Position numbers and translations under genes: made by a program | Source of the DNA: Chionis minor | Taxonomy: Eukaryota > Chordata > Aves > Charadriiformes > Chionididae | Assembly: GCA_013398295.1 (NCBI GenBank) | Contig: VZSF01007805.1 | Location: 1,174,333-1,238,332 of the forward strand | Reading direction: 5' to 3' | DNA length: 64,000 bases | Shown here: positions 3,001-60,000 of the stretch, one piece after another | How positions within the stretch are numbered: position 1 is the first letter of the stretch | How the letters are laid out: each line of letters begins with the position of its first letter | Notes under the pieces: generated by a model | Told to the model about the DNA's origin: nothing | The model's database searches: none | Seen by the model: only the letters and a program-made list of their open reading frames with translations

Positions 3001-3105
3001 GGCAGATTTAAAAATTGTTTCATTAACCTGTATCAAAATCATATAGGTTTCAAATAGAGGCTTCTAAATAAATGGAAAGATTGACTAGTTTGTTTTGTTT
3101 TTCAG
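1..3105 (+). other. BCL10: Presumed BCL10 intron 1 (upstream part cut by window edge)
   Basis: This AT-rich stretch ends in a polypyrimidine tract and the acceptor TTTTCAG at 3099-3105, directly before BCL10 exon 2. In the family a short first coding exon of about 20 codons comes before this exon. I searched by eye for a GC-rich first exon with a donor and found none, so exon 1 and the promoter probably lie left of the window. Apart from a minus-strand open frame at 608-832, listed separately, I see no gene or recognisable repeat here. Confidence 0.6.
608..863 (-). other. Unexplained minus-strand open frame, possible pseudogene or lost exon
   Basis: An open frame of 74 codons from an ATG (832 down to 608) runs upstream without a stop for about 12 to 15 more codons. 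It has balanced, protein-like composition, with four cysteines and a Gly/Thr-rich start, and no low complexity. A second minus-strand frame is open for about 40 codons immediately upstream, at roughly 985-858. I do not recognise the protein. It could be a decayed processed gene, a terminal exon of an antisense transcript, or chance. The segment lies inside presumed BCL10 intron 1 on the opposite strand. Confidence 0.2.
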
Positions 3106-3394
3106 GCTTTAGAAAGGATGCGTCCTTACCTGTGTGACAAAATCATAGCTGAGAGACACTTTGATTACCTTCGTTCAAAGAAAATACTCACTAGAGAGGA
3201 CACAGAAGAAATTTCTTCTCGATCTTCCAGTAGGAAAAAAACTGGGAAGTTACTGGACTACTTGGCTGAAAACCCAAAGGGACTAGATGCTTTAATTGAA
3301 TCTATCAGACGAGAAAGAACACAAAACTTCCTGTTACAAAAGATAACTGACGTAGTGTTGAAAGTCAAAAATGAAAAACTTGAAGCTCTCAAGG
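3106..3394 (+). CDS. BCL10: BCL10 exon 2 (CARD domain)
   Basis: The acceptor TTTTCAG ends at 3105 and the donor GTGAGA starts at 3395. The exon is 289 nt, enters in phase 0 and leaves in phase 1. It holds nearly the whole death-fold CARD, whose helices mediate filament formation. Confidence 0.95.
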
Positions 3395-4870
3395 GTGAGA
3401 AGTTTATAATAATATTTTGTAAGATGTAAGTTCTGTCTCGAGGGCCTGCAGAATTAAACTCCAATAATTCTTTAAATCATGTTTCTTCGTACAGATTATT
3501 TTTTTTACTTCCTCTAGTGTTTGGGACAACATTCTTGGAAATATTGCCAGTTTCAGTTTAAGATACTAGTGCACGTATCCTAGCTCTGCCTTTTTACTAT
3601 CTGAACATATCATAAATAACAAATTGCAAAAAACCTTACCGTGTGTTGCTGTGATGGATAAGTCTGTCTTCACATCTCAGTTTTGCTTTCTATGAAGTTC
3701 TAATTCAGAACTCAAAATAGGTGGTTATCTTCCATCTTGCATTTCTCTTGAAGCTATTTGCTGCAGTGGCAGGATGCTCTGGTTTTGTTAGACTTTGCAC
3801 CTCTGCAGAAGGTAGGCCAGCAAATGCAACCCGAGGGGAATTCTGCTGCTTGCCTTCAGTGGCAAAACTCCAAATTAGGCACTGTAAATGTATGCATGTG
3901 TTGTATTGTACAGGTAGAGGAGTTTTTGACACCCCCAAAGCCTGAAGTGACTATACATACTCAGATTTTAAAGCAGATAAAGCATTCTAAACCAAAAAAA
4001 AAAAAAAAAAAACAAAACAAAAACCCAACCTTACTTCCCCTTCCACACCCGTGAAAAGAGAAATAAAGAAGGAAGAAAGTATATTTTTAACCCTAGAGAT
4101 GCAAGGCCTGAAGTTTTCTCTGGCTTCAGGTAAAACAGCCTTCAAATGCAGTCCACTCTGGAGAACCATGTAGCTGAAGCTTTTAAAAGTTGAAGAACCG
4201 AGTGAGAAAAATCTGTCAAAAGATGGGTCAAAGGGCTAAAGTGACTTCGTAAAATGAAGCTTAAATTACGGTGCATCTTTGGGAAGTAGTAGCTGGTACA
4301 GAAATATAGAGAAATCGGTCGCATAAGCCTAGATAACCTGCATGTGTGGTTTTTTTTTTTAATTTGTCATGAATATTGGGCTGTCACATGTGAGACGAAG
4401 AGGCTGAAAATACAGACATTCGATCTTTGACAATCTTGATATTAAATCAGAGCACAGTTTTAAGAGTGCACTATGTTGTAACTGGTCTGTTTTTTGTCTT
4501 AGGTCTAAGCTGCAGCACCTGTATGACCTCACTGTATGGAGGAACGAATGATCTCTCTAGGTCCTATTCTGATGAATCTAATTATTTTGATAAAACAAAA
4601 GACAAAGAATCTACCCAGATACATCATCCAGAAGAAGATTATAGCACCGCCGCGTTTGTGTCTGCTGTCTCTCTCCATTCAATGAATGTGCCAGTCGCGG
4701 AGATGGGAAATGCCGAGAGTGCTGTGTTCTCAGCCACCCTTCCAGGGCCCGGAGACCCCGGTGCACCCCCTCTCCCCCCAGACCTCCAGGCAGAGCAGCA
4801 GGAACCATGTACTAGTTCAAGTGACAATTGCTTTTTGCCTTTAAGATCGCGTTCTCTTCAACCACAGTGA
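3106..4870 (+). CDS. BCL10: BCL10 immune signalling adaptor, partial (coding exons 2 and 3)
   Basis: BCL10 is the cytoplasmic CARD adaptor that polymerises under CARD9/10/11/14 and recruits MALT1 to activate NF-kB. Two exons are visible, 3106-3394 and 4503-4870, joined in phase 1 through a glycine codon, and give 218 residues. Exon 2 carries the CARD, with IIAERHFDYLRSKKILTRED and KLLDYLAENPKGLDALIES as clear family blocks. Exon 3 is Ser/Thr-rich, as expected of the MALT1-binding tail, and keeps PGDPGAPPLPP and the terminal FLPLRSRS. Human BCL10 is 233 aa, so about 20 N-terminal residues from exon 1 are missing; exon 2 begins in frame with Ala-Leu-Glu, as in human. The ATG at 3118 is internal and is not the start. 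No frameshift or stop is seen. Confidence 0.95.
3395..4502 (+). other. BCL10: BCL10 intron 2
   Basis: This 1108 bp intron has a GTGAGA donor and a TTTTTTGTCTTAG acceptor. It contains a run of 19 A at 3994-4012 that continues as an A/C-rich tail to about 4027, the type of sequence left by an old poly(A) tail. I see no coding sequence. Confidence 0.9.
4503..4870 (+). CDS. BCL10: BCL10 exon 3 (C-terminal MALT1-binding and Ser/Thr-rich tail) with stop
   Basis: The exon starts after TCTTAG at 4502, completes the glycine codon, and reads Leu-Ser-Cys-Ser-Thr-Cys, which corresponds to the start of the MALT1-interaction segment in the family. It ends at TGA 4868-4870. The middle part is divergent, while the proline-rich block and the last 15 residues are conserved. 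Confidence 0.94.
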
Positions 4871-6884: not shown

Positions 6885-10317
<3,433 letters not shown>

Positions 10318-13900: not shown

Positions 13901-14740
13901 CTAGATCAAGATTACTGATAACGCATCCGTGGCATTCATAGCTATGAAGCTGTAAAATTAACAGCCATTGTTCACGTTCCTCAACAAGTCCCTGGAGAGA
14001 GCACTCCCAGGAAAGATGCAGTCACGGTAAGCCTTGCAATTACAGGAGTGCATCCAACAGTCCCCAAAAGGGGATTCAAGTCTTCTCTGTTCCCTTTTTG
14101 CATGATTAGGAGAAGTGACACAGATTTACAAACCAAGAAAAATTAATAATGATGTGGTGCTTAATGAAAGCAGATAGGATAAGCGTGAAGAAATGAGCAA
14201 TAAGAAGATTTTCGCATTTGCTTTGAAAGTAGAAGCGGGAAAGACTCGGAAGAAGCTGAGGGACAAACCTTGGTGGAACAAGAAACAGACTTGAAGGTTT
14301 TCTTCAGGTCTGGGCAGGTGATCATGCAAAATTGGCTACTCTGTGCATGAGGATCAGTGAAATGTGTGAGTGAACACTGACTAAACTTAAACCGATAGCT
14401 CAGATGTTCCAAAAATCTCTCGCTAGAGAACAGTTTATCCTGGATTGTCTTTCAAGAGGAGACAGTGACAGCGACAGTGAACATACACCCCCGCTGACAA
14501 ATGGGGAAGATTGGCGCTGAAAATGAGCCCTCTATTAACTCATCATCATGCTGTTTTTATGATGAATCAAATGTGATGATGATCATTATGTGTAATGGGG
14601 AAAAAAAGGCAGTAAAAAAAGGTGTACAAGTTTGATCGGAGAAAATTCTCTTAAAAATTTGTCAAGATTAGAAAAACAGTGTCTGGAAGGCAATTAATTT
14701 GCTGTGAAAGCATTGTGTTGCCTCCAGATGCTGGCACAAT
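10903..14740. other. Intergenic sequence without recognisable gene
   Basis: Only short, poorly supported open frames occur here. I looked for a gag-like or protease-like region that would extend the gypsy-type relic at 14.74 kb to the left and could not support one. No intact repeat family is recognised. Confidence 0.6.
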
Positions 14741-16375
14741 AGCAGCTACATTACTTGGATTTCCAAGAAAGGCAGGATGATGTGGAAAAGCAGAAGTCAC
14801 ATCGGTATAAAAGTACAGCTGTTGCGGATAATGGCTTTCATGGCAGGCAGTGCTTCCTCCCAGAAATGTTAATGCAGAGGTTGTTGCAAGGCATCCCTCC
14901 CTCAGTCCACTGTTCCTATGCGACAGCTTGATGCGCGCTAACACTATGGAAGAAATTATTCATTTACAAATGGTTTGTGATAAGCTTAAGGCTGCCAATC
15001 TGAAAATGAATCCAGGGAAATGCAGTGTATTCCGCAAAGGGTAATTTATTGTGAAACCGTAATCAGTGCAGGAGGATGATAATTTTTTTTTTTTTATCAA
15101 CAGAGAGAAACACAAGCTGTGCGGTGCTGCCTGGCTCTTACTTTCTCTGGGGTCAGGAAGCTCATTTGCCAGCTTGCTAATCTCACAAAATCACGTCAGA
15201 ATTTGGGTGAAAAGATGCAATGCTTTCAGTCACCAGCAAGATACAATTTGGGTTTTCTTTTCAGGCTTGAAAGCTTCTTGTGCCTCTTTCTGTCTTAGCT
15301 TGCTGATTTTTTCCAAACCCCTTTGACTACTGGTCACAGACGTTTGTACTTTGCTTTGGGTGTGGGTTTGATGCGAGAACAATGTGGAACCATCTTAAAA
15401 GCATGGGAGCTGGTTACCGCTGAAGTGTGCATCCTTCAAGGATAAACGGTGGTACCAGTTGAAAGGGACCTCTGGCAATGGCTACAGCTGTGCAGCATTT
15501 CCGTTTTGAAAGAAAATGTGCAAGGATACTGACAATTACTCGATAGACTGGAAAATACTGAAAGTTTGGTTTCTGAATAGCTGGAAAAATCCCAGCACTG
15601 TCAGGCCTGGGCAGAAGCATGGCCATACTGGTGGGCTATGGAGGTGAGCTTGCTCTACCAGTAACAGTGGAAATAGCTGCCCAGGTGTGCTCAGGAGGAG
15701 AAGCTGAGTCCTCTCTCTGTAATTCACAGGAGGGCAAACATCACAGAGGCAAAAAAACTTCCCAAAAAGAAGACTAGCATGGGATGTATTTAAAAAACCC
15801 TTGAGCGAATGGAGGCACCTTGCTAAGCAATCCGATTCCATTACTGCCAGAGGTGCTTTCTGGGTGCATTTGCTGCGGTGAAGTTTAAAGAACGATGCAA
15901 GAAGAGATGGCGATGGGCTAGGCAGTCTGCAGCTGCCTCAAAATGTCAAGACTGAAAGAAAAGCAGGATTTCTGTAGAGTCAAGTGTTGGCAAAATACAG
16001 AAAATTGCTGAAAGAAATACAGTGTTTTCATTGCACAGGAGGCTTCCCATGGGACACGGAAATCTCAGGGAATGGTTCTGTTCCTGAGACAAACGTGTTG
16101 GTAGCAGTGGACTGCCTTCCAAAAGCTTGTAAGTCGTATAATTAGGAACCAAGAAATAGTGGGAATAAAAGAGATGGAGATTCCAGCCAGCGAGCTCTTC
16201 GTGCACAGACTATCGCAGACTGAAGGAAGCGACGTTGTCTTCAGAGGGGTCCAGAGAATTTGTGTTGCTGGCAGAAATGTGCAGCTGGGCCTGAAAGGCA
16301 AAGTCGCAGTAGAGATTGGAATGGGTTTATGCTGCTGGTCCCTTTGAACTATTTTCTTCAGGGCACTTCTGAAAA
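14741..16375 (+). mobile_element. Decayed Ty3/gypsy-type retroelement pol relic (RT, RNase H end, integrase)
   Basis: Motifs of Ty3/gypsy pol follow each other on the + strand in changing frames. At 14783 a Trp-Lys pair is followed exactly 16 codons later by Met-Ala-Phe (14831), the spacing of the RT W-K...M-P-F block. QRLLQGIPPSV is at 14875-14907, the degraded catalytic Tyr-x-Asp-Asp site at about 14917-14931, and ANTMEE then KLKAANLKMNPGKCSVF at 14937-15035. A frame change leads to VIYCETVISAG up to about 15073. QHFRFERKCAR, resembling the RNase H end, is at 15493. VLVAVDCLPKA is at 16095, SDVVFRGVQ at 16228 and GPFELFSSGH at 16337, which match the integrase core V-V-D, S-D-R-G-x-Q-F and S-P-F-E blocks. 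Order and spacing fit, with some deletions. Many stops and shifts make it non-functional. No LTRs were identified. Confidence 0.68.
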
Positions 16376-17393
16376 AAGCAGGAATTTTCAGGGAAGCCAG
16401 GACCTGTGAAGCTGGATTGGCAGAAGAATGCAATGAATTCAATGAATGGAGGTAAGCATTTTTGGTCCTATTCAAATAATTTTATCAGTGCTCTTCATTT
16501 AGAAGATGAAGTGCTTTTCATCTTTAGAATGTTTTCGTCTTAGTGGCTTCAAAAGATAAATCACAGCTTTGCTTTGCCGTAGCTGTGAGCAACAATGCAA
16601 GTGCTCTGTGTTTTGCTGCCTTCTCACAAGGTGAACCTATTCTTTGGAGCAAACATTGATTTCTCATCCCTTCGCTTAACTTCTCCCACCATCTGTGTCT
16701 TCCTGTAGATGGATTGATACGAAAACAAATGCAGGATTAATACAGGGTAACACCAGGAGAGTGTAATGGGGAGTTAAACCTAAACCACAGGATTTACCAG
16801 GAGAGGATTAACATATTCACCTCAAACCAAGCCAACCAACCAACCCCCCCCCCCCNNNNNNNNNNNNNNNNNNNNNNNNNNNNNNNNNNNNNNNNNNNNN
16901 NNNNNNNNNNNNNNNNNNNNNNNNNNNNNNNNNNNNNNNNNNNNNNNNNNNNNNNNNNNNNNNNNNNNNNNNNNNNNNNNNNNNNNNNNNNNNNNNNNAG
17001 AGGATTAACATATTCCCCCAAACAAAACCACCAACCCCCCCCCCCCCCCCAGCAGCAGGCTGCCAGCAAAAGTAACTGGGGAGCCTGTCTGTTGGGAAGC
17101 ACAACATGGTCCAGTTTTGTTAAACAAGTAACTTCTCTGACATGTGGTGGTAAGAGATGCCTTGAGGAACCCGACCAGGTGATGTGAGAGACTAATTACC
17201 TTTCTTTTGTAGGAAGGAACACATCTACGTAAAAAAGACCTAAAGAAGGGGCTTACACAAAAACATTTCTCTCTGTTAGGTTTCTGGTCCAGTAAAAGTA
17301 TCACTTTCTGTTGTGATTAGAAGAAGCCTAAGAGAAATGCACAGATCCCTTCTTCAGGACTGATAAAATGGTATTTTGTGAGACTAAGAGCTT
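16376..17393. other. Intergenic sequence around assembly gap 1
   Basis: No gene is recognised. The stretch holds the 143-base gap at 16856-16998, with C-runs on the left (16844-16855) and right (17035-17050). Confidence 0.7.
16856..16998. other. Assembly gap (143 N)
   Basis: Undetermined bases between two poly(C)-rich flanks. The flanks are near copies of each other: AGAGGATTAACATATTC occurs at 16802 and again at 16999, each followed by an A/C-rich segment and a C-run. Confidence 0.98.
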
Positions 17394-20500: not shown

Positions 20501-22490
20501 AGAGTCACTTCCAAAGCAGACTCCTGATCCAAACCCAAATACTTCTGCAGTCACACCCTGCTTGCACGAGGAGCACCGCACGTGCAGAACCCCAGCGTCT
20601 CCGGGACGTGCCTTCGCGCCAAAAATACATCTTGCTGGGAAAAATGCAACTGTATGGAAAGCAAAGCTCGTGCTCTTGGTAGCACGCCAATATTGCCTTC
20701 TAAAGGTAGCTTTTTCCTTGCCTTATTTTTCTTTTTTTCTTTAATTAATTGATTCACTGGTTCTTATATTAAGTATAGCGGGTGGTGGAGAATGAGAGCG
20801 AGAGTAAATTGCAGCACTTATCCTTGCTTATCTGCTGTTCGCAGACCGTTAATATTTCTCCTTAGAGGCGCCGCATTCATTCCTGCAAGAATCTGTACAT
20901 GTGTATGAGGCTCAGCTATGTATGAATCCCACTACAGGCAATGAAAAGTCTATTGTACATGAAGCTAATCGTACACGTGAATTTACACTGCCAGGGGCCA
21001 TAGCGTTGCGCCTCTGATTCTTGATAGGGGCTGAAGTCTTGTTGTGCACCTAGCAGTAGAACAAGGAAAGTGATTTGTGGGTTTTTTTACTCCTAGAAAG
21101 AATGGATCCCCTTCCCTCCCCGCTCTGCTTTTTTCTCAGCAAAACTTACTAGCATCTGAATTTTGCAAACTTACAAAAACATTTTTTTCGTTTCAATGTA
21201 GATGTCTTAAAAGATGAATTTCTCCTTGAGGGTATTTGGCCAAGGTGGAGAGAGAGATTGATCATTTCCAGATGCTCTTTGCTGACAGGCAAAGAAAAAT
21301 TCTCCTTCAGGTTAACATTTGTGAATGTATTTTAAAAATACATATTTTGTAGGCAAACCTGACGGGGAGAGAGCAAGCCAGTATGACAGGCATCTTAAAA
21401 GTGCCCGAGACGCATAGATTTGCATCGTCAGAGCTACATTGATAAGATGGGGCTCATCCCTGCTGACTGGGCTAAAAGCCTTTGGAGCTTCCCTCTCTAT
21501 CTCGTATGGACAAGCAGAGGAGATGGATGTATTTTTCAGGCAGAAACACGGAGGGCACATTCAGCGTGTGTCACAGTAGGCATTTGATTCAGCAATGCTC
21601 GCTTTGAAGTGGAATTGGACAGGTTAAAAATACAAAATTCACCTTTTATTTGATGCTTTGGGTACGTTTTCCAACGGTATTCCTAGATATTGCGCACTAA
21701 GTGCTGGCAAGTCTTGGCACAGCGAACAAACGACAAGTTTGTGTTTCTGGGGAGTACCCTGAATTGGAGAAGCGGGGAGAGCTGATGTCTTACACGTCAT
21801 CTGAGAATAGAGACAGTCGGAGAGAGCGATTGTGTGTTTGCATCCTGCTCGCCGTGCGCTCTGTCTCCCTTCCCTTCGCTGCAGAGCACGCGCAGCGCTC
21901 CGGTACCGGCAGCTGCTGTCACCGCTGCTTTTCCCTCCTGACAGGAAATCAATGAGTGCTTTGGTTTTGGCTCTCTTGCCTCCAGTAGTCTCTAACGACT
22001 ACAACGTGAGGGCTTCTGAATGGGGAAAGCTGAGACTCAGCCTGTTCTGTAGGAGACCCCAATACCTGGAAAGAGCAGATTCTTCTTCAGTTGGTGCTGA
22101 TCTCTAAGGTCACAGCACCTGGGAAGTAACAGCGCTCACACCTGTCAGCGGCAAAGGAAATGCTGGGGGAAACAGTCCTTAACTTCCATCCATAGCTGGA
22201 GTTGTCCTTCCCAGAAAAGCCACTGGAGACCAGGATGCTTTTGTGAGTCACAAGCGGGTTTCCATGGGGTAGGCAGAGGAGGTGGGGGCGGTCGGTGGGA
22301 CCAGCCCTGCGTGTTGCCTGCTTGCGCACGTTGGATCCTGGTGACATGGATTTCTGTTGAAATGGTCAGTAAACCTGTCTCCATTCAGTTAAACAGTTAT
22401 AACTGTTTTAACTAACTAATTAACTGCCAAAAAGACTGATAAACACATTCTAGCTATCCGGAGAGGTCTCCGCTCCTGTGCGTGGCAAAG
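17522..22490. other. Intergenic sequence without recognisable gene
   Basis: About 5 kb with scattered short open frames only. An A-rich/AAAC-type simple tract lies near 19410-19448. A faint CR1-like stretch near 18975-19040 is too weak to call. Confidence 0.6.
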
Positions 22491-22509
22491 CTCAGGGCCC
22501 TGGGAGCAT

Positions 22510-22855
22510 TCTTTTTTCGATAGGACCAGTCTTTTTTTCAACCAGCCTTTTTTCAATGGGACCAGTCTTTTTTCAGCAGTGCCCAGTGACAGGACAAGAG
22601 GTAACGGGCACAAACTTGAACACAGGAAGTTCCATCTGAACACGAGGAGGAACTTCTTTACTTGGAGGGTGGCAGAGCACTGGCACAGGCTGCCCAGAGA
22701 GGTGGTGGAGTCTCCGACTCTGGAGACATTCCAAACCCGCCTGGACGCCATCCTGTGCAACCTGCTCTAGGTGGACCTGCTCTGGCAGGGGGGTTGGACC
22801 AGATGGTCTCCAGAGGTGCCTTCCGACCCCGGTGATTCTCTGTGATTCTGTTATA
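22510..22855 (+). mobile_element. CR1 LINE 3' fragment with internal tandem duplication
   Basis: This is the same region of CR1 as the copy at 9.2 kb: GCCCAGTGACAGGACAAGAG, GGCTGCCCAGAGAGGTGGTG, CCGACTCTGGAGACATTCC, and the 3' end GGTGATTCTCTGTGATTCTG. At its 5' side, 22511-22576, the unit ACCAGTC(T)nCA is repeated three to four times with small changes, which is not part of the usual element. Confidence 0.93.
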
Positions 22856-36000: not shown

Positions 36001-39000
36001 TTTCTATCCATAATTCAATGTTTGGCCGTTGCTTTAAAGAAACTGTGTCAAGTTTTGGGAGCAGTCAGTGGAATTTGATGAGGTGTTGCATGAAATTTTT
36101 GTTGTGTAATGAGATAGTTAAAAACTTTTCTACGTTTCTTCTTCTTCCTTCCCTCCTTTCATGATGGTGTGTTTTGTTTTATTCCCCACGAATCAGGGGG
36201 TGCTTCTGTCTTAATTATAGGATAAAGCTGGCAAAGACAGTCCTTTCTGAAGGTTTCTGTGCAAGGGATATCCTCACCTTTATTTATGTGTAAATCTAGA
36301 AGTGAATCTATGTGGGGGTTTTGTAGCTGTTTTAGTGCGTTACACCAAAAGCAGAGGCTATTTCTTCATTGGGGTTAAGTAAACTGGAAAAATAGTATGC
36401 AGCAACTTTTCAAACTAATTGTACCTGAACTTGGCAGAAAAAAAGCAGCAGTTTCTATGTAAGTATGCGTGACCTTTCAGCAGAGCTATCTCACTGCCAT
36501 TTATCTAAATTACATGGTGTTAAAAATACAGCCAAACAAGTCTGACTCTTTATTAATTATGTACACATTCTACTTTGACAGGCTGAAACCTAATTTTTAT
36601 GATCGCATCAACTTATCTTTTGTCCTTTTGGATGAGGTGTAATGCAGATGTCGTACAACAGCGTTATGTGTTCATCTGTCAAAAGCAAAACAATATTCTA
36701 AATGTTTGTCTTTCCCTCTCTTTTTGCCTTTCTTTTTGGGAACAGATTTAATAGAAAATGTTTACATAGCTTCGAGAAGCAGGAAGGAGCCCAAGTCCCC
36801 CCAGGCCAGCGAGGTGCCCGAGCACCGGCCGCAGATGAACAGCATCACCGTTTCGAAGAAACGCAGCTGGCTGCAGCAGAGCACGCACCGACCTCCTCCT
36901 CCTCCTCCTCCTCCTCTGGAAGAAGAAAACCCCTGGAAGGAAACGCATGGGGCTGTTATCCCGGTACCCAAATCTCCCATCCCACTGTCTGAACCCGCAG
37001 TGCCGTGGGCTCCTGGCACGTCACCAGTGGGGAGGGAGCGCCCGGCGCGAAGCTGTGCTCCCGTGGGCGCCCTGCCGAGCACCCCAAGCCCTGCCGCACC
37101 AAGGAGGGCTGCTTTGGACTTCGGTGAGGATAACGATGCTGATGATGAAGGAGAAATATGGTACAACCCAATCCCTGAAGACGAAGAGCCCGACTTGCCG
37201 AGGGTTCGCCTTTCTGCTGCGAATAGCCCTGTTGCTGTGGGCTCCCTGGCGGTTCGGAACAAAACCCCACTTGGGGGCGACTCGGGGACGGCTGCGGGTC
37301 CCCACGAGGGTCCCCCACGCTCCATGGAGAGCATGGGGGACAGTCGGATGGCTCAGCCCAGCGAAGCGACTCAGGCCGATGCCATGCATCCTGGGGAGCA
37401 CGTGCAGCAGCACCGGCAGAGGTTTTCCGGCAAGGCAGCCGGTGTGCCAGCAGTGGAGGACAATCCTGCCTTGAAGTGCCCTTCAACAGGTAAGAGGGTT
37501 CAGGAACATAAAAGCGTGATGTCCTCTGTTTTCTTTTAGAGGAATAATAAACCATTCTTCTTTCCTCTTTCCCCTCCTTTCACCTTTATCAAGCAAACTT
37601 TCAATGGAAACGCATGTCAAGTTCATTTAAAAAAAAAAAAAAAATTATTCAAATGGTGAGGCTGATGCCTACTAAATGTAGAGCTGTGCAGTGGTTTCTC
37701 GCTCAGTTCTTCCATGGCGTGTCCAGCTGTGGTTGTCCACTGTGCTCTTTGGCCCCCACCTTGCTGAAGACCAAGGTTTTACGTAGCGAGCTCGCTGAAG
37801 CCTGGTAGCGTGAGGAGAGGCTGGGTTTCCTTTGTTAGCTAGTGTCTAACCCTGGCCTTGGATTCCAGCCTCAGACCTTCTTAATGTCTGCAGCAGTTTC
37901 TTTAACTTGCTGCCTGGGACTTCTTTTTAATAAAGACTTTTTGGAAGACCGTGTAAACGCTATTCATCTCATCGCTTTCTGTAATTGCTGTCTTGTTGAC
38001 TGTCTCGGGCTAATCTAATGGAGTGGAGAGGAGTGGTTTTCACTTTCAGAAGCCAGGCGCTTTGTTCCTTGTTATCTTTGGCGGAGTGTTGGATAGTCTC
38101 ATTTCCATAATTCCATTAGTGTGTGTGAATTCAGCATCTTGTTAAAGATTTTTCCCGGTCTGTTAAAAAAAGCCAAACAAAAATAAAACCACACCAAACA
38201 AAAGTAAGCAGAAAAAAAACCAACCCAGCCCTTTCCAAAAAGGTATTATTTTTAATTACTGATGTGTCTTGCATTATCTTGACCTTAACTCTAGTATCCT
38301 GTTGAGCGCTGGAAAGTTAGTGTAAAGTTCATGAGGCAGGGAATTCCAGGTTGCCCTTTTTTTCCGAAAGTTCATGCTTTCTTTGCGCTGACATTTAAGA
38401 GCCTGTATTTCTGCCCGGCTCAACAGAGAGGTCCCAGGTGGGCATCACCCTGGAGGAGCCCCCTCCGGGGCACCAGCATCCAGCCTCTTTGTCCCAGCTG
38501 TGCCATGTCCCGGCGTGCTGGGAGTTGCTGTGCCCAGATTCCCAGTGCGGAGATTGCTTCTGGGAATGGGGCTTGTTTTCAAAGGCACCAAAGCAACCAC
38601 TGTAAACAGCGGAAGAAAAAACAGTCGGTCTCGTCTTCTGGGAGCTCACATTTAGTTCTTTTTGTGGAAATGCTGTAGATACGAGTGTATTTTTAGTTGC
38701 AAAGTATGTTAAAATTATTGGGCATTTATTTAGAAATAGCTCACTTCATAGCTGCGTTAAATAGTTAGACCAATTGTATTTGCTTGCAAGATAGATGAAA
38801 TATCATGTTCTTAAGTAGATTTTTTTTTTTCGTCATTGGAGCCCTAGGTGCTTTGGAGAGGTCAGTAGGCATGGTTATTTAGGAAAGCCATGGGTATGTC
38901 CTGCAAACTGTTTCACTGCCACTTAGGTGATTAATCTCTCAATATATAGGTGACTTTTTAAAAAAAATCCTTTAGGTAAGAAGAAGAAAGTCAAAATTGT

Positions 39001-45000: not shown

Positions 45001-48000
45001 GCAAGCCTTTGAGAAATCTGTAAGAGTAAACTCTGTAAAGTATGATTTGCTGAGTATCTCGAGAAAGCAACGCTCCTTTCTTTCTTTTTATACGCTGTAA
45101 ATAGACTCTCCCTTTCCTTGACTATCAGGGGGCGGATGGCACATGGATACAGGTGTTGGAGTCTCCGTGAGCTGCTCGGGCTCACGGCACCACACAGGGT
45201 TAGTTAGTGTGCTTAGGAGCTCTGTGGTACCCTGCACAGGCAAGGCTATGTGAGTCCTGTTAGGAGCCCCCAAAATTTGCCAGGCGATAAGTAAATGGGG
45301 TGGTTATTGCTAGCAAGAACCATGATTGGTTTTTCAAGGCATAGAAAAGTGACTCTAAGTGAAAAATACTCATGTAATTTTATTAGTATCTATCAGTTTG
45401 GCCTCAGTTCCCCTCTTGCACGCTTCGTTAACTCATGTAAAGTCATTGCCTTTCCTACAGTCATTACTGCCTCATGCTGGTGAAAGTGAGAAAAGCTTGA
45501 GCTATGACTTGGTATTTGGATTTCCTCGAGTATTGGAGCATTGGAGCATGAGGTGAACCGCAGGTTCCTGACTGTGTGCAGTACTGGCTTATGTCTGATC
45601 ATGTTCCGTAATTAGTTGTCTTTTACTGCTAAATTGAGGGAGTATTTTTTTTTTCTTCTCCCTTCTTTAACATCAGTGCCTGCTGTTATGATTTTTTTTT
45701 TTTTAATTTTTTTTTTTTTTTTTTTTTTNNNNNNNNNNNNNNNNNNNNNNNNNNNNNNNNNNNNNNNNNNNNCAATTGCTTTTTTTATGATTTTTTTTTT
45801 TTTATTTTTTTTTTTTTTTTTTTTTTTTGGTACCTTGAAAGATGGATGATTTCCCATAACGATGTCACTTGGGAACCATATAACTTTAAGCCACGCCACG
45901 GGATGATTGTGCCAGGAAAGATGGAAAGTTGCTGGCAGGAATGAGGCAGTGCAGGATGCAGCTTTTGGAAGGAATGAATCCTTGTTGTGTTCCTCATCCA
46001 GTGGTGGAAAGGAGGAGCTGAGAGAAATGGAGGAAAAGTTGCGAGATGCTACCTGCATCTACACAGGAGGGATTTAGGGCTCTTTTGGATGACAGAGGGA
46101 CATGGGCAAGAGTGTAGCTATATTCTTTGCTGGAGACAAGCATCTATCCTCTGGACTTAAGGGGAGCGGGCAACACTGATGTGTTGGCAACATAGCTAAC
46201 TTTTGTAGACAAGGGTAGATTTGCTGTATTCTAGTGTTTTCCCATTTAAGACTGGTTTTGTGGCAGCTGTGCCTTGGGAATGCAGCCATGCCTGCTTGTA
46301 CAGCGGGTACGGCACAAACGGATTGAGCTGAATGCAGCGGGTGAGATAGCTCATTTGTTTATATGTCGTTTCTGGCCCTTTCATCTCCGTAAAGCAGAAC
46401 AAATCTGGCTTCTGACAATGGACTGCCAAATTTGGCTGACCAAGTCAGCAGAGCACAGCTTTCTGAGTGCTTGTGAACTTCTGACTGATGAATGAATGAC
46501 AGTTGTCTGAATTAATTGCGTTTATCAAGTTATGATAGATCAACAAGTTTTCCCCTAGTTCAAGATTTGTTTTTTCTTTGCTGTGAACTGCAGTTACTGG
46601 GCGGTTTGAAAATTGTTGTCATTTTCTCTTCTTCTACAGGGTCTGGAGTTGTACTTGCACACAAGGCTGATATACCCTCAACAGAGGTTTCTCCTCCAAG
46701 TCCTAGTCCTCTGAAAAAAAGCGGATCAATCAACTGGCCTTTCCCTGATAGAATTAAGTCTCCCAGGACTGTGAGGAAGCTGTCCATGAAAATGAAAAAG
46801 CTGCCAGAGCTGAGCAGGAAACTGAGTGTCAAGGGAACTTCAAGCCATACTAGTTCAGATAACCCTCCTTCCCTGCTGAAGGGTAGCTGCCGGGATACAA
46901 GCCATACAGTGTCTTTGCCATCTTCTGGAAACTCGACCACCACTGCCAGCAGGAATGTGATAAGTCGTTACCACCTCGACAGCAGCGTGTCGTCGCAACA
47001 CACCTACAAAAAGAAAAGCTCGAGGAGCTCCAAGTCCTTCAACAAAGGTGGCTACCTCAGCGATGGTGACTCTCCTGAACTTATAACAAAATCAGGTAAA
47101 CATGGGCATGAAACCAAGTGCGGGAAAGGAAAGGAGAGCCTGCCAAGCAACAGTGGTAAAACTGAAATAGATATTGATGCTTTCAGACATTATAACTTTT
47201 CTGATCAACCCAAGTGCTCTCAGTACATCTCTGGACTCATGAGCATTCACTTTTATGGTGCTGAAGACTTAAAACCACCAAGAATAGACTCAAAAGACGT
47301 CTTCTGTGCGATACAGGTTGACTCAGTAAACAAAGCAAGAACAGCCCTGCTTACATGTAGGACAGCGTTTCTAGATATGGACCACACGTTCAACATAGAA
47401 ATTGAAAACGCTCAGCACTTAAAGCTGGTGGTGTTCAGCTGGGAACCCACCCCACGGAAAAACCGCGTGTGTTGTCATGGAACCGTGGCTCTTCCCACTC
47501 TTTTCCGTGTGACAAAGACACATCAGCTGGCTGTCAAACTGGAACCAAGGGGGCTCATTTATGTCAAGCTGTCGCTCATGGAGCAGTGGGAGAACTCTCT
47601 TGATGGGCTTGATGCAGATCGGGAGCCTGTGATGTTCGGGGTAGATGCTCGAAAAGTTGTAGAAAAGGAAAACGCAGGCTTGATGGTGCCACTTCTGATG
47701 CAGAAATGCATTCTGGAGATTGAAAAGAGAGGCTGCCAGGTACTGTGCGTATTTTAGTCCGTGTTGTTAATATTTCTGTGTTGGGATAGCTGTTTTTCCA
47801 GAGCATGAGCAGCGAGGGGGGGCAAAGGGAGAAATTAAAAACACCTTCATGTGATGCTTTTTTTGCTTTGCTGCTGCTGCTGTTTGTTGAACATTGTAAT
47901 GTGGGAAGACTAACAGGACTGTGTGAAATCGATGCTTCCAACTCAGCCTTTCTGAAGGAGACACACACTTGCTCACAGTCGTGCTCTAGGGCCAGGGATA

Positions 48001-51000: not shown

Positions 51001-54000
51001 ATAGTAGCTTTCTCCTGCTCAGTGGGGTGGCCCTGTATTTGCTGTCACGCAGCAAGCTCCAGGCAAAGGTGGGAAGGACTGGGAGCACGGGACCAGGAGG
51101 TCTTAGGAAGCCCATCTGCATCGGCTCTTTACACAAGTGTTTTCACAGGAGTTGCACTGCACAACTGAAGTAAGTTGTTGAGGGGTTTTTTTGTTTGCTT
51201 AAAAGTAGAACAGCATTATAGCTATTAATACTTGTTATGTAAACCAAAGTTCATCTAATTTCAGGCATCACTGAGTAAACCAATTGCTCCAGGAAATTGG
51301 GCAGGAGCATTCGTTTCCTACATATCCAGGGATGGAAAATGTAACAACACTAGTCAGGGTATAAATTTTCTGTGACAAAGCCTTCTTTGTAACATCCAGC
51401 TGGACAGTCCTACCCTGTTTGGTAGCTTATTTCAGGGTATCGGGAATGAATTTTGTTCATTACACTTATACAAAGTGGTATCACAAGATATTACTTGGTG
51501 ATGTTTACTGGGTTAAATAAATCTTTTGGCTCAGAATGTCCAGCTCGTTGGTTTGCCTTACTGGCCTTGGCTGGTTTCGCTGTTGGGCTCAGTGTTGCTC
51601 ACCAGTGGCAGCGTTCCCAGCAGCAGAAACTTGTGTTTCACTCTGATGGGATGCACCCTTTAGAAGGAGGAGGTGTCCAATAAAATAAATAGCATAAAAG
51701 GTCTCTTAAGCTAGATAATTTCCTTCTTTTTACACATAATGAGAAAAAGTGTTGATAGTTTCTAAGATCAGATTGTTCCATGAAATTACTGAAGCCAAAT
51801 TTTCTTCCCAATTTTTGTAAATCAACTCAGCATCAGGCAAATGAGACTCAACAAGGCCAAGTGCTGGGTCCTGCACTTGGGTCACAACAGCCACATGCAG
51901 CCCTATGGACGTGGGGAAGAGCGGCTGGAAAGCTGCCTGGCAGAAAAGGACCTGGGGGTGTTGGTCAACATCTGCCTGAATGTGAGCCGGCAGTGTGACC
52001 CAGGAGGCCAAGAAGGCCAACAGCATCCTGGCCTGTATCAGGAGCAGTGTGGCCAGCAGGACTAGGGCAGTGATCATCCTGTTGTACTTGGCACTGGTGA
52101 GGCCCCACCTCGAATACTGTGGTCAGTTTTGGGCCCCTCACTACAAGACAGACACTGAGGTGCTGGAGCGTGTCCAGAGAAGGGCAGTGAAGCTGGTGAG
52201 GGGTCTGGAGAACAAGTCTTATGAGGAACAGCTGAGGAAGCTGGGATTGTTTAGTCTGGAGAAAAGGAGGCTGAGGGGAGACCTTATCACTCTCTACAAC
52301 TACCTGGAAGGAGGGTGTAGGAAAGTGGGTGTTGGTCTCTTCTGCCAAGTAACAGGTGATAGGACCAGAGGAAATGGCCTCAAGTTGTTCCAGGGGAGGT
52401 TTAGGTTGGGTATTAGGAAAAATTTCTACACAGAAAGGGTTATCAAACATTGGAACAGGCTGCCCAGGGAAGTGGTGGTATCACCATCCCTGGAGGAATT
52501 TAAAAGATGGGTAGACATGATGCTGAGGGACATGGCTTAGTGGTGGTTTTGGCAGTGTTACACTGATGGTTGGACTCAATGATCTTAAAGGTCCCTTCCA
52601 ACCTGGGTGATTCTATGATAACTCTGAAAGGGAGGAAAAAACCCCTCTGTTGCTTTCTGCCAAACAGCAGAGACTATCTGATACTGACTTGTAAGCAGGC
52701 AAATGGCAAACTGCTGTTGGATTAACGTAAACTCTTGGCTAATAGAAAACTGTGGGGTTTTTTTAATTCTGGAATAATAAAAATGGCATTGCACTCCCAT
52801 GCTACAAGTAATCATTACAGTAAAACAGTATTTGCAGGAGCAGTTCAGGAATATCATGGGAAAGGGTGTAGGAACTTAATTTTCACAGAATGTTAAGGGT
52901 TGGAAGGGACCTCTAGAGATCATCTGGTCCAGCCCCCCTGCCAGAGCAGGTCCAGCTACAGCAGGTTGCACAGGATGGCGTCCAGGCGGGTTTGGAATGT
53001 CTCCAGAGTCGGAGACTCCACCACCTCTCTGGACAGCCTGTGCCAGTGCTCTGCCACCCTCCAAGTAAAGAAGTTCCTCCTCGTGTTCAGATGGAACTTC
53101 CTATGTTCGATTTTATACCCATTGCCCCTTGTCCTATCACTGTGTACCACTGAAAAAAGACTGGCCCCCTCCCTTTAAGTATTTGTAAACATTGATGAGA
53201 TCCCCCCTCAGGCTTCTCTTCTCTAGGCTAAAGAGACCCAACTCCCTCAGCCTTTCCTCATAAGGAAGATGCTCCAGCCCCCTAATCGTCTTCGTGGCCC
53301 TTCGCTGCACCCTCTCCAGCAGTTCCCTGTCCTTAAACTGGGGAGCCCAGAACTGAACCCAGCACTGTGTTCAGTTTCGTCCATATACAAAAAGAACCTG
53401 TAAGACTTCATAAGCATTTTGATTTTCCTGAGTACATTGTACGCCCAGAACCAACCAGAACTGGCTGAAACAGAAGTCTGAACTGCTGGAGGGGCAGCGG
53501 GGCAGTCTGACCCATCTTCCCATCACAAGTTTATGATGCAGTGGTTAGATAGAAAAGCATACATTAGGTTTTTTAATACACATTGCTGCAAGCCTCATTG
53601 GTGATGGCGAGCTTCTGGTGACTCTACAGGTCCTGCTGGACTCTTGGCCCTTTTTTTGGTTTGTACTGCTGAAGGGTAATTTTTGGCATCCAGAATTTGT
53701 ATTGTGAGTGTGAAAAGACTAAAGCCTTGGTGTCTGTCTTACTGAGAGACTACTGGATGTGCTTTTGTATGTGTTATATTGCAAGAGTTTCCTTGTATGC
53801 TTCTTTCCTTACAAGGAAAAAATAGTTTTAAGAAATTACGTTTAAAAAAATGGGTTTTTTTCCCAGATTCCCCTGCTGCTGTGCTGTGTGATTGCCAGTA
53901 GCACCTGTGTTAGTGTTGTGTTGAGAGAACTGAGTGCGGGGGTCCTGCCTGCGTTGGGGGGAGCGGGGAGGGAAGGGGCGCCTGCACCCATAGCTGCAGC

Positions 54001-57000: not shown

Positions 57001-60000
57001 GCTGCGGGGACAAGGGTGCTGGTGCCCCCAGGCCTCCTGGGGACGTTGCAGAGGTACCTCCTGCCTCTCAGCTGACCCGGTGGGATCCCTTACGTACCCG
57101 TGGTTCACTGAGCCCTTTTGCTGTCATCCTCCCCTCCCTTGCTCCCCAGTGTGAGGTTTGTCACCAACACAGAGGATTTTTTCACGGGCTGGGTGAAGCT
57201 GATGTGCCTTAGCGCTACCCAAAATCGCTGGAAAGTGAATTTGCAGCTTGTTAAGGGCAACTGTTCTTGTGTCTCTTGTGAAGGCGTCCTAAAGGACTAC
57301 CTGCGAGAGCTACCCTCTCCCCTGATAACCAAGCAGCTCTACGAAGCGGTGTTGGATGCCATGGTGAAAAACCCCTTGAAAATGACAGCAAGCGGTTGCG
57401 AGAATGACCCGAGTGACTCTGAGCACACAGCAGCCCTTCTGGATTGCCTGCCAGATGTTGAGAAGGTGAGCGGTGTTGGGAGGTTCACGTGAATTGCGTG
57501 CTTCGGAAAATAAAGGAACATTTTCACGCTGGATGTGAAATGTGTCAAAATGTGTACATCTGTTTCCTGACTTAACAGTCCACTTGGATTTTTGATGCTC
57601 CGCGTCTTTGAAAATACTTCCATGTTCTGATTAGTTGGAGGGTCTGCATTGCTGGATTTATTCTAGTTTGCATTTTCTATTGTCTCTATAAAACTGAATG
57701 AAAAGCTGTGGTCACTACTTCTACATTGTTAGATCGAAGATTATTCCCATGGGGTGTCCTGCTCCATTTCTGTGGAGCTCTCTGATCTGTATGCCATAAT
57801 TCCATGGGCAAATGCATTTCTCTTTCCTAAGTGTGTGCAATAAAGCCTTCACCTCCCATACTGTGCAGGGTAGTAGTGCTGTGCACCATTACTGGGAGAG
57901 AGTGAGCGACTGGCCTGCACAGTACCTGGAAGTTTGTTCTGACGCTGAGATCATATTGAGGGTTTCTTTATTTTCTAATCTACCCGGGTCATCTGTGCTG
58001 CTCCTGTAGCTTCTCTCCCCTCCCTGATGTCCCCTTTCCACTGTGAGAAAAGTCATACATGTACAACTGAGATCAGGTAAGAAACGAGATGAATTTTGCC
58101 AGAAAGTCTTTCTTAACTAGTCTGCTCTGTGGTAGTCTATAATACAGCTTTTCTAGTTCAGCACTTAGATGTTCGGTTGATAAGTGTTGGTAGAAAAACC
58201 ATAGCTGTCAGTCTTGATCTTATCCCTCTAGAGCAGCGACATTAGGATGTCAACACCACCTTCGTCTAGTGTTTTGTTTCCTGAGCACTGCTTTGTTCTT
58301 CTAGGCTACTTTGAAGATGCTGTTGGATCACCTGAAACTGGTGGCTTCTTACCACGAAGTAAATAAGATGACGTGCCAGAATTTAGCTGTATGTTTTGGG
58401 CCCGTGTTACTGAGCCAGAGGCAGGAGACCACCAACCACAACAACAGAGTCTTCACAGACTCAGAAGAGCTTGCTAGTGCCCTGGACTTCAAAAAACACA
58501 TAGAGGTTCTTCACTATTTACTCCAGCTGTGGCCAGGTACTGTTTCATGAATCTGATCGAGGGGAAAACGTCAAACCCTTACTGTCTGTTGGCACTGTGT
58601 CACAGTGTACATTAGGATGACTGAACAGCATCACAAGTCTTAAAACACGAGATACTATGGTTATCACCTATTAATCTAAAGAAATCATGATAATTTTATC
58701 ATCTACTCTTTGTATTCAGTCACTTTGTTTAACGGGAAGTTTCTTGTTTTAATTGCTTTCTTACCAGGTGGAGGAGTTTGAGTATAATGTAAGGTGTGAA
58801 GAGTGCTTTATGTGAGTAAAGACACTAGAAAAAACAAACCCAGTGACAGTAAGGTTTCCACATCTGAATTAGGGGGTTTTGGGGGTGTTTTGTTTTTGGT
58901 TTGGTTTTCTTTCTTCTGCTTTTCTGCTTTGACCATTCAGGATTATCTGCGTATGGAACTCATTAGTTGTTTGGTCTCTGAGATAACGGAAACATTATTT
59001 TAATTCTGCCCTTGTAATTTGGCAGAGTTGGGAACATACAGTAAGAGCTGTGCCGCTTCTTGTTGTTTTTGCAGAGCTTTGCCTAAAGAGAAATGTTTTT
59101 AAAACAAAACACAACAAAAAAACCAAACAACAAAACCCAAACCAAAATGCCCTAAGTACCTTTGAGCTCTCACTTCCAAACTTAAGAGGTTGTATACTTT
59201 TGCACAACTTGGGCCTAATTCTCAATAAGAAAGGAGGCGATTCTAATCTCCCTAATAAACTACTCAAGTAGAAGTGAAGGTAACTATTTCTGCTGAGATC
59301 TGCCTTTCAAACGGAAAACAATTGCACGGTGTTCACATTTGCCAATTTTTGTTTAACCAGGGAGAGTTTGAGGGTAATACTGTGAAACAATTTAACATTG
59401 GATCTGATGGAGTTAGTTTTGTTTTCAGATAGTCCTTGGGCAAGCAGTTGTTGAAAGCTGCCCAACCATGCAGAAGATGGGTCTGTTGAGCTGTAGCGTC
59501 TTCCTTTTTTCACAGTGGTCTGGCTAACGGTGTGGAGAACTGATCTGTTTGGTAACCTGAATAATTTAATATCCACGTCTCAAATTTGAGCAGTGTGAAC
59601 CCTTTAATTCTCAAGGTTAAGAGAAGATTCAGCTCATCTAAATAGCTTCTTACTTGTTCCCTTTTAAAACACAGTAATTGCTCTTGGGAAACTGCTGAAT
59701 TTCTGCACCAATAGAAACGTGAAATGGAGTTACAGATTAATTATTTGTCAGGGTTTGTTTTTAAATTTATTTTATTTTTACTTGAAGAGAGGGTCTGCTT
59801 TTTGTGGGAGACTTGTGGTCACCTGGGAAACATGGAGGGTCATGAAGGGCTTGACTTGGCAATACTGATTTACAGGTGCTGTGGCTGCATTTGAGCCAGC
59901 CAGGTGGACTCTGCTGCTTTGTCTTCAGGATACAAGATATTCCTCAACTTATTTAAGGAGTGTTTGGGGAAGAGTTCAGGGTTTTGGTTTTTTTTCAGTC

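What the first reader, a model, noticed from the sequence alone, without database searches (positions are those of the whole stretch)
14741..16375. Ancient Ty3/gypsy-type pol relic in a bird intergenic region
Seen in the sequence: nine short motif matches on one strand that follow the order RT, RNase H end, integrase, with the RT W-K to M-x-F spacing exactly 16 codons and the longer intervals (about 0.5 kb from RT end to RNase H end, about 0.57 kb to the integrase V-V-D block) close to those of gypsy elements. Known: the repeat content of bird genomes is mainly CR1 and endogenous retroviruses, and intact Ty3/gypsy elements are not usual. Inference: an old insertion, possibly from before modern birds, now degraded by stops, frame changes and deletions. 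If orthologous copies exist in distant birds or crocodilians it would date a gypsy invasion of archosaurs.
Basis: partly seen in the sequence, partly recalled or inferred. Interest (0 to 1): 0.75.

Follow-up and report, generated by a model that had tools for sequence, protein, structure and literature searches.

The report
Fossil Ty3/gypsy retrotransposon in bird DNA
A worn-out piece of an ancient Ty3/gypsy jumping gene lies between two genes of a bird-like genome, one of about ten dead copies that can still be recognised there, and such fossils could help to date when birds lost this kind of mobile element.

Summary
Window 14910-15041 (+) is the end of a Ty3/gypsy reverse transcriptase: all 62 tblastn matches (E<=0.01) of 120 gypsy pol proteins to the 64-kb window start at 14800-14999 + (best 4.9e-6). 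It scores 40 bits against gypsy references but at most 18 against 21 other retroelement loci of the same genome. An RNase H signature follows at 15146-15653 (0 of 1000 shuffles). An integrase-core signature at 16095-16322 is only suggestive (15 of 1000). The part upstream of the YxDD position and the integrase zinc region do not exceed chance. No LTRs were found.

It is one of a family. A sister copy's RT piece finds 11 places in the 1.15-Gb genome, the window third (E=1.7e-7); 8 of the 10 sister loci are supported on their own, and one has an RT piece 60% identical to a gypsy protein (E=2.7e-20). Copies differ by about 35-42%, which suggests Mesozoic age, but orthology in other birds or crocodilians could not be tested. 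It is most likely a dead element without function: a new member of a known kind.

The parts
14863..14895 (+). possible RT piece just before the YxDD position (another frame than the RT end)
   Evidence: best piece (33.4) of the RT fingers/palm chain, which as a whole is not significant: 136 of 1000 shuffles
14910..15041 (+). end of a Ty3/gypsy reverse transcriptase (from the YxDD position on), stop-free frame 14832-15041
   Evidence: tblastn best E 4.9e-6, all 62 matches of the window start here; 0 of 1000 shuffles; genome search with a sister RT piece E 1.7e-7; gypsy 40.4 bits against 17.7 for the best other retroelement locus
15035..15076 (+). continuation of the RT end in another frame, up to a stop
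   Evidence: weak single piece (19.7) in the right column order, part of the RT-end chain
15146..15653 (+). RNase H region in pieces: 15146-15229, 15350-15388, 15472-15504 and 15603-15653 (end of RNase H, with an in-frame stop)
   Evidence: 0 of 1000 shuffles, 1 of 188 other places in the window; 0 of 200; not found by Pfam RT_RNaseH_2
16095..16322 (+). possible integrase core: 16095-16124, 16141-16176, 16235-16261, 16265-16285, 16311-16322
   Evidence: suggestive only: 15 of 1000 shuffles, 3 of 276 other places; 5 of 200

Best explanation
The stretch is the decayed pol remnant of one insertion of an ancient Ty3/gypsy LTR retrotransposon family that was active in the ancestors of this bird-like genome. 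While alive, such an element copied its RNA into DNA with its own reverse transcriptase and RNase H and inserted the copy with its integrase (known of the class, not shown here). The family then died out; this copy lost recognisable LTRs and gathered stops and frame changes, so it codes for nothing now and most likely does nothing. Shown: class, strand, RT - RNase H order, further copies in the genome, decay. Inferred: the integrase part, great age, lack of function.
For: 120 gypsy pol proteins against the window: 62 matches at E<=0.01, all starting at 14800-14999 +, best 4.9e-6. Piece chain 338 against a shuffle mean of 173 and maximum of 254 (0 of 600). RT end and RNase H each 0 of 1000 shuffles. 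Gypsy rather than other retroelements: 40.4 bits (114 of 120 references match) against 17.7 bits (3 of 21 loci match). DNA matches to three other places of the genome at the RT end, best E 2.7e-14; 11 places with a sister RT piece; 25 of 278 stop-free pieces of the window and ten sister loci match gypsy references at E<=0.01, 0 of 278 reversed. A sister RT piece matches in the PDB Ty3 (two entries), an 'Enzymatic polyprotein' and, at 0.16, an unrelated enzyme, and no retrovirus at E<=10.
Against: Single pieces of the window give no Pfam match over a cut-off, best RVT_1 E 0.18; no homologue of the window piece in the protein collection and none of use in the PDB. RT fingers/palm, protease and integrase zinc region do not exceed chance. 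No LTR pair. The genome-wide RT_RNaseH_2 search did not list the window and listed only 2 of the 10 sister loci. The profile chain by itself does not separate gypsy from retroviruses.
Confidence: 0.93

Rival explanations
1. It is an old endogenous retrovirus, the usual LTR element of birds, misread as gypsy.
For: Retroviral pol has the same order, and ERV-like loci of this genome score high on the gypsy profile chain (up to 899).
Against: Direct comparison: window RT piece 40.4 bits to gypsy, 17.7 to the best of 21 loci; 9 of the 20 loci show a retrovirus-type YxDD stretch by eye. Six sister pieces behave alike, one of them narrowly (L027 RNase H 24.6 against 21.6). A sister RT piece has no retrovirus among its PDB matches at E<=10.
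Confidence: 0.03
2. The motif order is chance in a long stretch of intergenic DNA.
For: No piece reaches a Pfam cut-off; fingers/palm and integrase zinc region are at chance level; another window segment (36751 +) scores 261.
Against: 0 of 600 and 0 of 1000 shuffles, tblastn 4.9e-6, DNA matches to clearly gypsy loci elsewhere in the genome.
Confidence: 0.01
3. The relic, or part of it, has been kept for a new job, for instance as a regulatory element near C1orf52 or SYDE2.
For: In an alignment with ten sister copies 14958-15012 is 0.67-0.80 identical, other blocks 0.33-0.67. Exapted old gypsy fossils are reported for human (PMC9004415, passages).
Against: Every sister copy was found by searches that rest on this stretch, and among six other copies conservation is much more even (0.48-0.74, one block 0.88). 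No Rfam family in the window.
Confidence: 0.03

Closest known systems
Ty3/gypsy LTR retrotransposons (Metaviridae); best database matches P0056, P0104, P0081 (sources without organism name); solved relative Ty3 RT (4OL8, 7Q5B)
   Same: RT end, RNase H signature, order and strand
   Different: About 41-44% identity over 43-44 residues for the window, no LTRs, protease or gag traceable, integrase weak; the clade within gypsy is not determined
Gypsy protein fossils of human, alligator and turtle (Frith 2022, PMC9004415; passages seen)
   Same: Degraded gypsy protein fossils in amniotes; [quoted passage not shown]
MamGyp and related Gypsy families of mammals in Repbase (PMC5753468, passages seen)
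   Same: Extinct multi-copy Gypsy families in an amniote lineage
   Different: Other host lineage; not compared by sequence here

Membership tests
Ty3/gypsy (Metaviridae) | reverse transcriptase of Ty3/gypsy type | tested here: met
   RT end only; fingers/palm not significant in the window but 0 of 200 in six of ten sister loci
Ty3/gypsy (Metaviridae) | RNase H directly behind RT | tested here: met
   0 of 1000 shuffles; not seen by Pfam in the window
Ty3/gypsy (Metaviridae) | integrase behind RNase H | tested here: inconclusive
   core 15 of 1000, zinc region 376 of 1000; in the ten sister loci the core is at best 4 of 200, in L027
Ty3/gypsy (Metaviridae) | protease and gag upstream | tested here: not met
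   protease not found in the window (119 of 200 shuffles); found in sister L030 (0 of 200) and perhaps L027 (1 of 200). Gag not tested. The failure fits decay but leaves the membership of this copy to RT and RNase H
Ty3/gypsy (Metaviridae) | flanking LTRs | tested here: not met
   best direct pair 25.4 bits, 16 control pairs 22.6-29.7
Retroviridae / ERV | RT closer to retroviruses than to gypsy | tested here: not met
   sister piece
CR1-type LINE | LINE-type RT | tested here: not met
   three LINE loci score 163-212 on the gypsy chain, the window 338; no direct LINE comparison of the window piece was made

The most novel reading that the evidence does not exclude
Birds carry a fossil Ty3/gypsy family, not described in the papers seen, that was active in the Mesozoic line leading to birds, with copies at fixed gene neighbourhoods (such as C1orf52-SYDE2) that can date the end of gypsy activity in archosaurs.
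Probability: 0.45. Interest if true: 0.55.

Novelty: new member of a known kind. Interest (0 to 1): 0.4.

Why it matters
A survey of five birds contrasts their few kinds of mobile elements with fish and reptiles, which have Gypsy among others (PMC5486457, passages), and old gypsy fossils have been described in human, alligator and turtle (PMC9004415, passages). A multi-copy gypsy fossil family in a bird-like genome, with a copy in a gene neighbourhood that can be followed across species, offers datable markers for when these elements died out on the way to birds. It also shows that single-piece Pfam scans miss such fossils.

Tried and rejected
Pfam scans of single stop-free window pieces (16 pieces): best RVT_1 E 0.18, nothing over a cut-off. 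Protein search with the window piece: no candidate. Viral contigs with the piece and with a degenerate RT pattern: no relative. PDB with window pieces: one unrelated match at 1.7 and none. LTRs: nothing above controls. The idea that 14958-15012 is specially conserved was given up as mostly an effect of how the copies were found. The profile chain was first meant to settle the class; one search showed that ERV-like loci score high on it too, so the class was retested. An RT palm piece of sister L032 finds only 3 places in the genome at E<=1. Dating by orthology could not be run: no other bird or crocodilian genome is held.

Full report
What was claimed. Nine motif matches at 14741-16375 (+) in the order RT, RNase H, integrase, read as an ancient Ty3/gypsy pol relic in a bird intergenic region.

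Place. The window is C2719:1174333-1238332 of an assembly of 1,146,497,876 bases in 4057 contigs. Pfam shows a CARD exon at 3085-3426 (BCL10 type), DUF4660 (which I recall as the C1orf52 family) in two pieces at about 8222-8616, a SYDE C2 domain in 46516-47754 and a RhoGAP exon in 57112-57489. The last C1orf52 exon is read by eye at about 10234-10317. The relic thus lies about 4.5 kb behind C1orf52 and before SYDE2.

First tests were weak. Sixteen stop-free pieces of the region gave no Pfam match over a cut-off; the best gypsy-compatible one was RVT_1 at E 0.18. The piece 14832-15044 found no homologue in the protein collection, no relative in viral contigs and nothing of use among solved structures.

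The genome gave the way in. A DNA search of 14660-16460 in the own assembly hit itself and three other places, all at the RT end: C30 (90% over 62 nt, E 2.7e-14), C4057 (70% over 161, E 1.6e-7) and C624 (87% over 46, E 1.2e-5). Pieces of these loci look plainly gypsy. The stop-free 73-aa RT piece at C30 (P0001) found seven proteins: P0002-P0006 at 82-96% identity and P0007, P0008 at 51 and 47% with Pfam RVT_1. As the next-best place in the own genome is far weaker (E 3e-10 against 3.9e-46), P0002-P0006 probably come from the same insertion in other species; their organisms are not named. They end at the same residue as P0001, which would suit a shared stop, but P0007 ends there too, so this is weak evidence. 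P0008 is nearest to Ty3 RT among solved structures (2e-17; first entry that I recall as gammaretroviral, 4hkq, 4.2e-6). From P0008, 3979 proteins with E<=1e-10 were found and the best 120 listed; these are the references below.

Tests against the references. tblastn of the 120 proteins against the 64-kb window, both strands: 62 matches at E<=0.01, all starting at 14800-14999 on the plus strand, best 4.9e-6. A position-weight profile from 82 of them was used to score short ungapped pieces in three frames, chained by order and spacing. 14400-16500 scores 338, its minus strand 164. 600 dinucleotide shuffles: mean 173, SD 22, maximum 254; without the RT-end pieces 248, reached by 1 of 600; of 118 window segments the two best (311, 268) overlap the region and the third (261) lies at 36751 +; three LINE loci 163-212; sister loci L013, L014, L015 392, 466 and 418 on the expected strand and 155-175 on the other. 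By domain, 1000 shuffles each: RT end 0, RNase H 0, integrase core 15, integrase zinc region 376, whole integrase 40, RT fingers/palm 136. With other limits and 200 shuffles: RT end 0, RNase H 0, integrase core 5, zinc region 16, fingers/palm 91, protease 119.

Class. The chain does not separate gypsy from retroviruses: loci brought in by Pfam RT_RNaseH_2 (132 places at E<=1), many of them ERV-like, score up to 899. Direct comparison does separate them. The window RT piece scores 40.4 bits against the references (114 of 120 match) and 17.7 against the best of 21 loci (20 and L036; 3 of 21 match). Sister pieces: L013 RT 65.9 against 19.6, L014 RT 53.5 against 21.9 and 45.4 against 23.5, L032 RT 76.6 against 32.7 (L036, itself a possible gypsy relic), L015 RNase H 43.5 against 18.1, L027 RNase H 24.6 against 21.6 (all). 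Nine of the 20 loci show a retrovirus-type YxDD stretch by eye; the rest were not classified. The L032 RT piece has four PDB matches at E<=10: an 'Enzymatic polyprotein' (8r0s, which I recall as a caulimovirus), two Ty3 entries and an unrelated enzyme at 0.16. P0001 has one, unrelated, at 0.11.

The family. P0001 finds 11 places in the genome at E<=1, the window third at E 1.7e-7; the weakest are C624 (0.03) and C1496 (0.28). Of the ten sister loci, eight have RT fingers/palm or RNase H at 0 of 200 shuffles; L029 (C265) and L033 (C1496) do not. Protease is at 0 of 200 in L030 and 1 of 200 in L027; the integrase core is at best 4 of 200, in L027. Of 278 stop-free pieces of the window and the ten loci, 25 match references at E<=0.01; reversed, 0 of 278. 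The window contributes one of the 25 (best 1.5e-7); the best is an L032 RT piece, 60% over 63 residues, E 2.7e-20. Nine sister pieces against Pfam gave RT_RNaseH_2 E 3.6e-4 and RVT_1 E 0.005-0.03, all under the cut-offs, for four of the nine; five gave nothing. A palm piece of L032 finds 3 places. The RT_RNaseH_2 search lists two of the ten sister loci (C2973, C624) and not the window. Counts are lower bounds.

Age. Over window 14900-15053 the eleven copies average 0.58 identity, Jukes-Cantor distance 0.64. Six better copies average about 0.65 over 15-nt blocks (0.48-0.74, one block 0.88). Half of a distance of 0.48-0.64 at 1.5-2 substitutions per 10^9 sites and year (bird rate recalled, from no call) gives more than 100 million years. 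This is rough: alignments of such old DNA are biased, and part of the divergence may be older than the insertions. Orthology could not be tested.

State of the relic. No LTR pair: best 25.4 bits, 16 control pairs 22.6-29.7. The RT frame ends at a stop after 15041; the next piece in order, 15035-15076, and the RNase H pieces lie in other frames. The element is dead.

Literature. Library searches: (nothing). Passages, not whole papers, were seen of PMC9004415, PMC5006616, PMC5486457, PMC4299795, PMC5753468, PMC8310711, PMC9025612 and PMC9997569. [quoted passage not shown] PMC9997569 lists 15,529 'LTR-RT-Gypsy' copies in a falcon; this may be a pipeline label that takes in ERVs (my inference). 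None of the passages seen describes a gypsy fossil family in birds; most subscription journals are not in the library.

Verdict. A real, decayed Ty3/gypsy relic, one copy of a small fossil family in this genome. Ordinary in kind; modestly interesting for dating the end of gypsy elements in the line to birds.

Noticed in passing
L038 (G000:C409:1148308-1148595 and around): A pol frame of 1222 aa without a stop with RT, RNase H, integrase zinc and integrase core domains; its RT is nearest to 7kse/7ksf and 7o0h (recalled as foamy-virus type), ahead of Ty3. It may be the bird version of OVEX1, a chicken retrovirus-derived gene (recalled; cited in PMC4299795).
   Followed up: partly
window 16802-17050: A run of N at 16856-16998 is flanked on both sides by nearly the same 50 bases ending in a run of C (repeats D2 and D6), which looks like an unmerged assembly gap.
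   Followed up: no
window 9400-9600, 22416-22770, 51986-52540: Stretches that look by eye like the 3' end of CR1-type LINEs; the frame at 51986-52540 resembles one in LINE locus L002.
   Followed up: no
window 14958-15012 and L010, L012, L031: The RT stretch shared with sister copies at 86-90% over 42-62 nt while the rest is far more diverged; mostly explained by how the copies were found, one block (14963-14977, 0.88 among six other copies) is not.
   Followed up: partly
G000, RT_RNaseH_2 places such as L037 and L039-L043: 132 places in the genome match Pfam RT_RNaseH_2, a mix of ERV-like loci and perhaps further gypsy relics; L041 and L048 have integrase stretches 40-43% identical to gypsy references. 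Only partly classified.
   Followed up: partly
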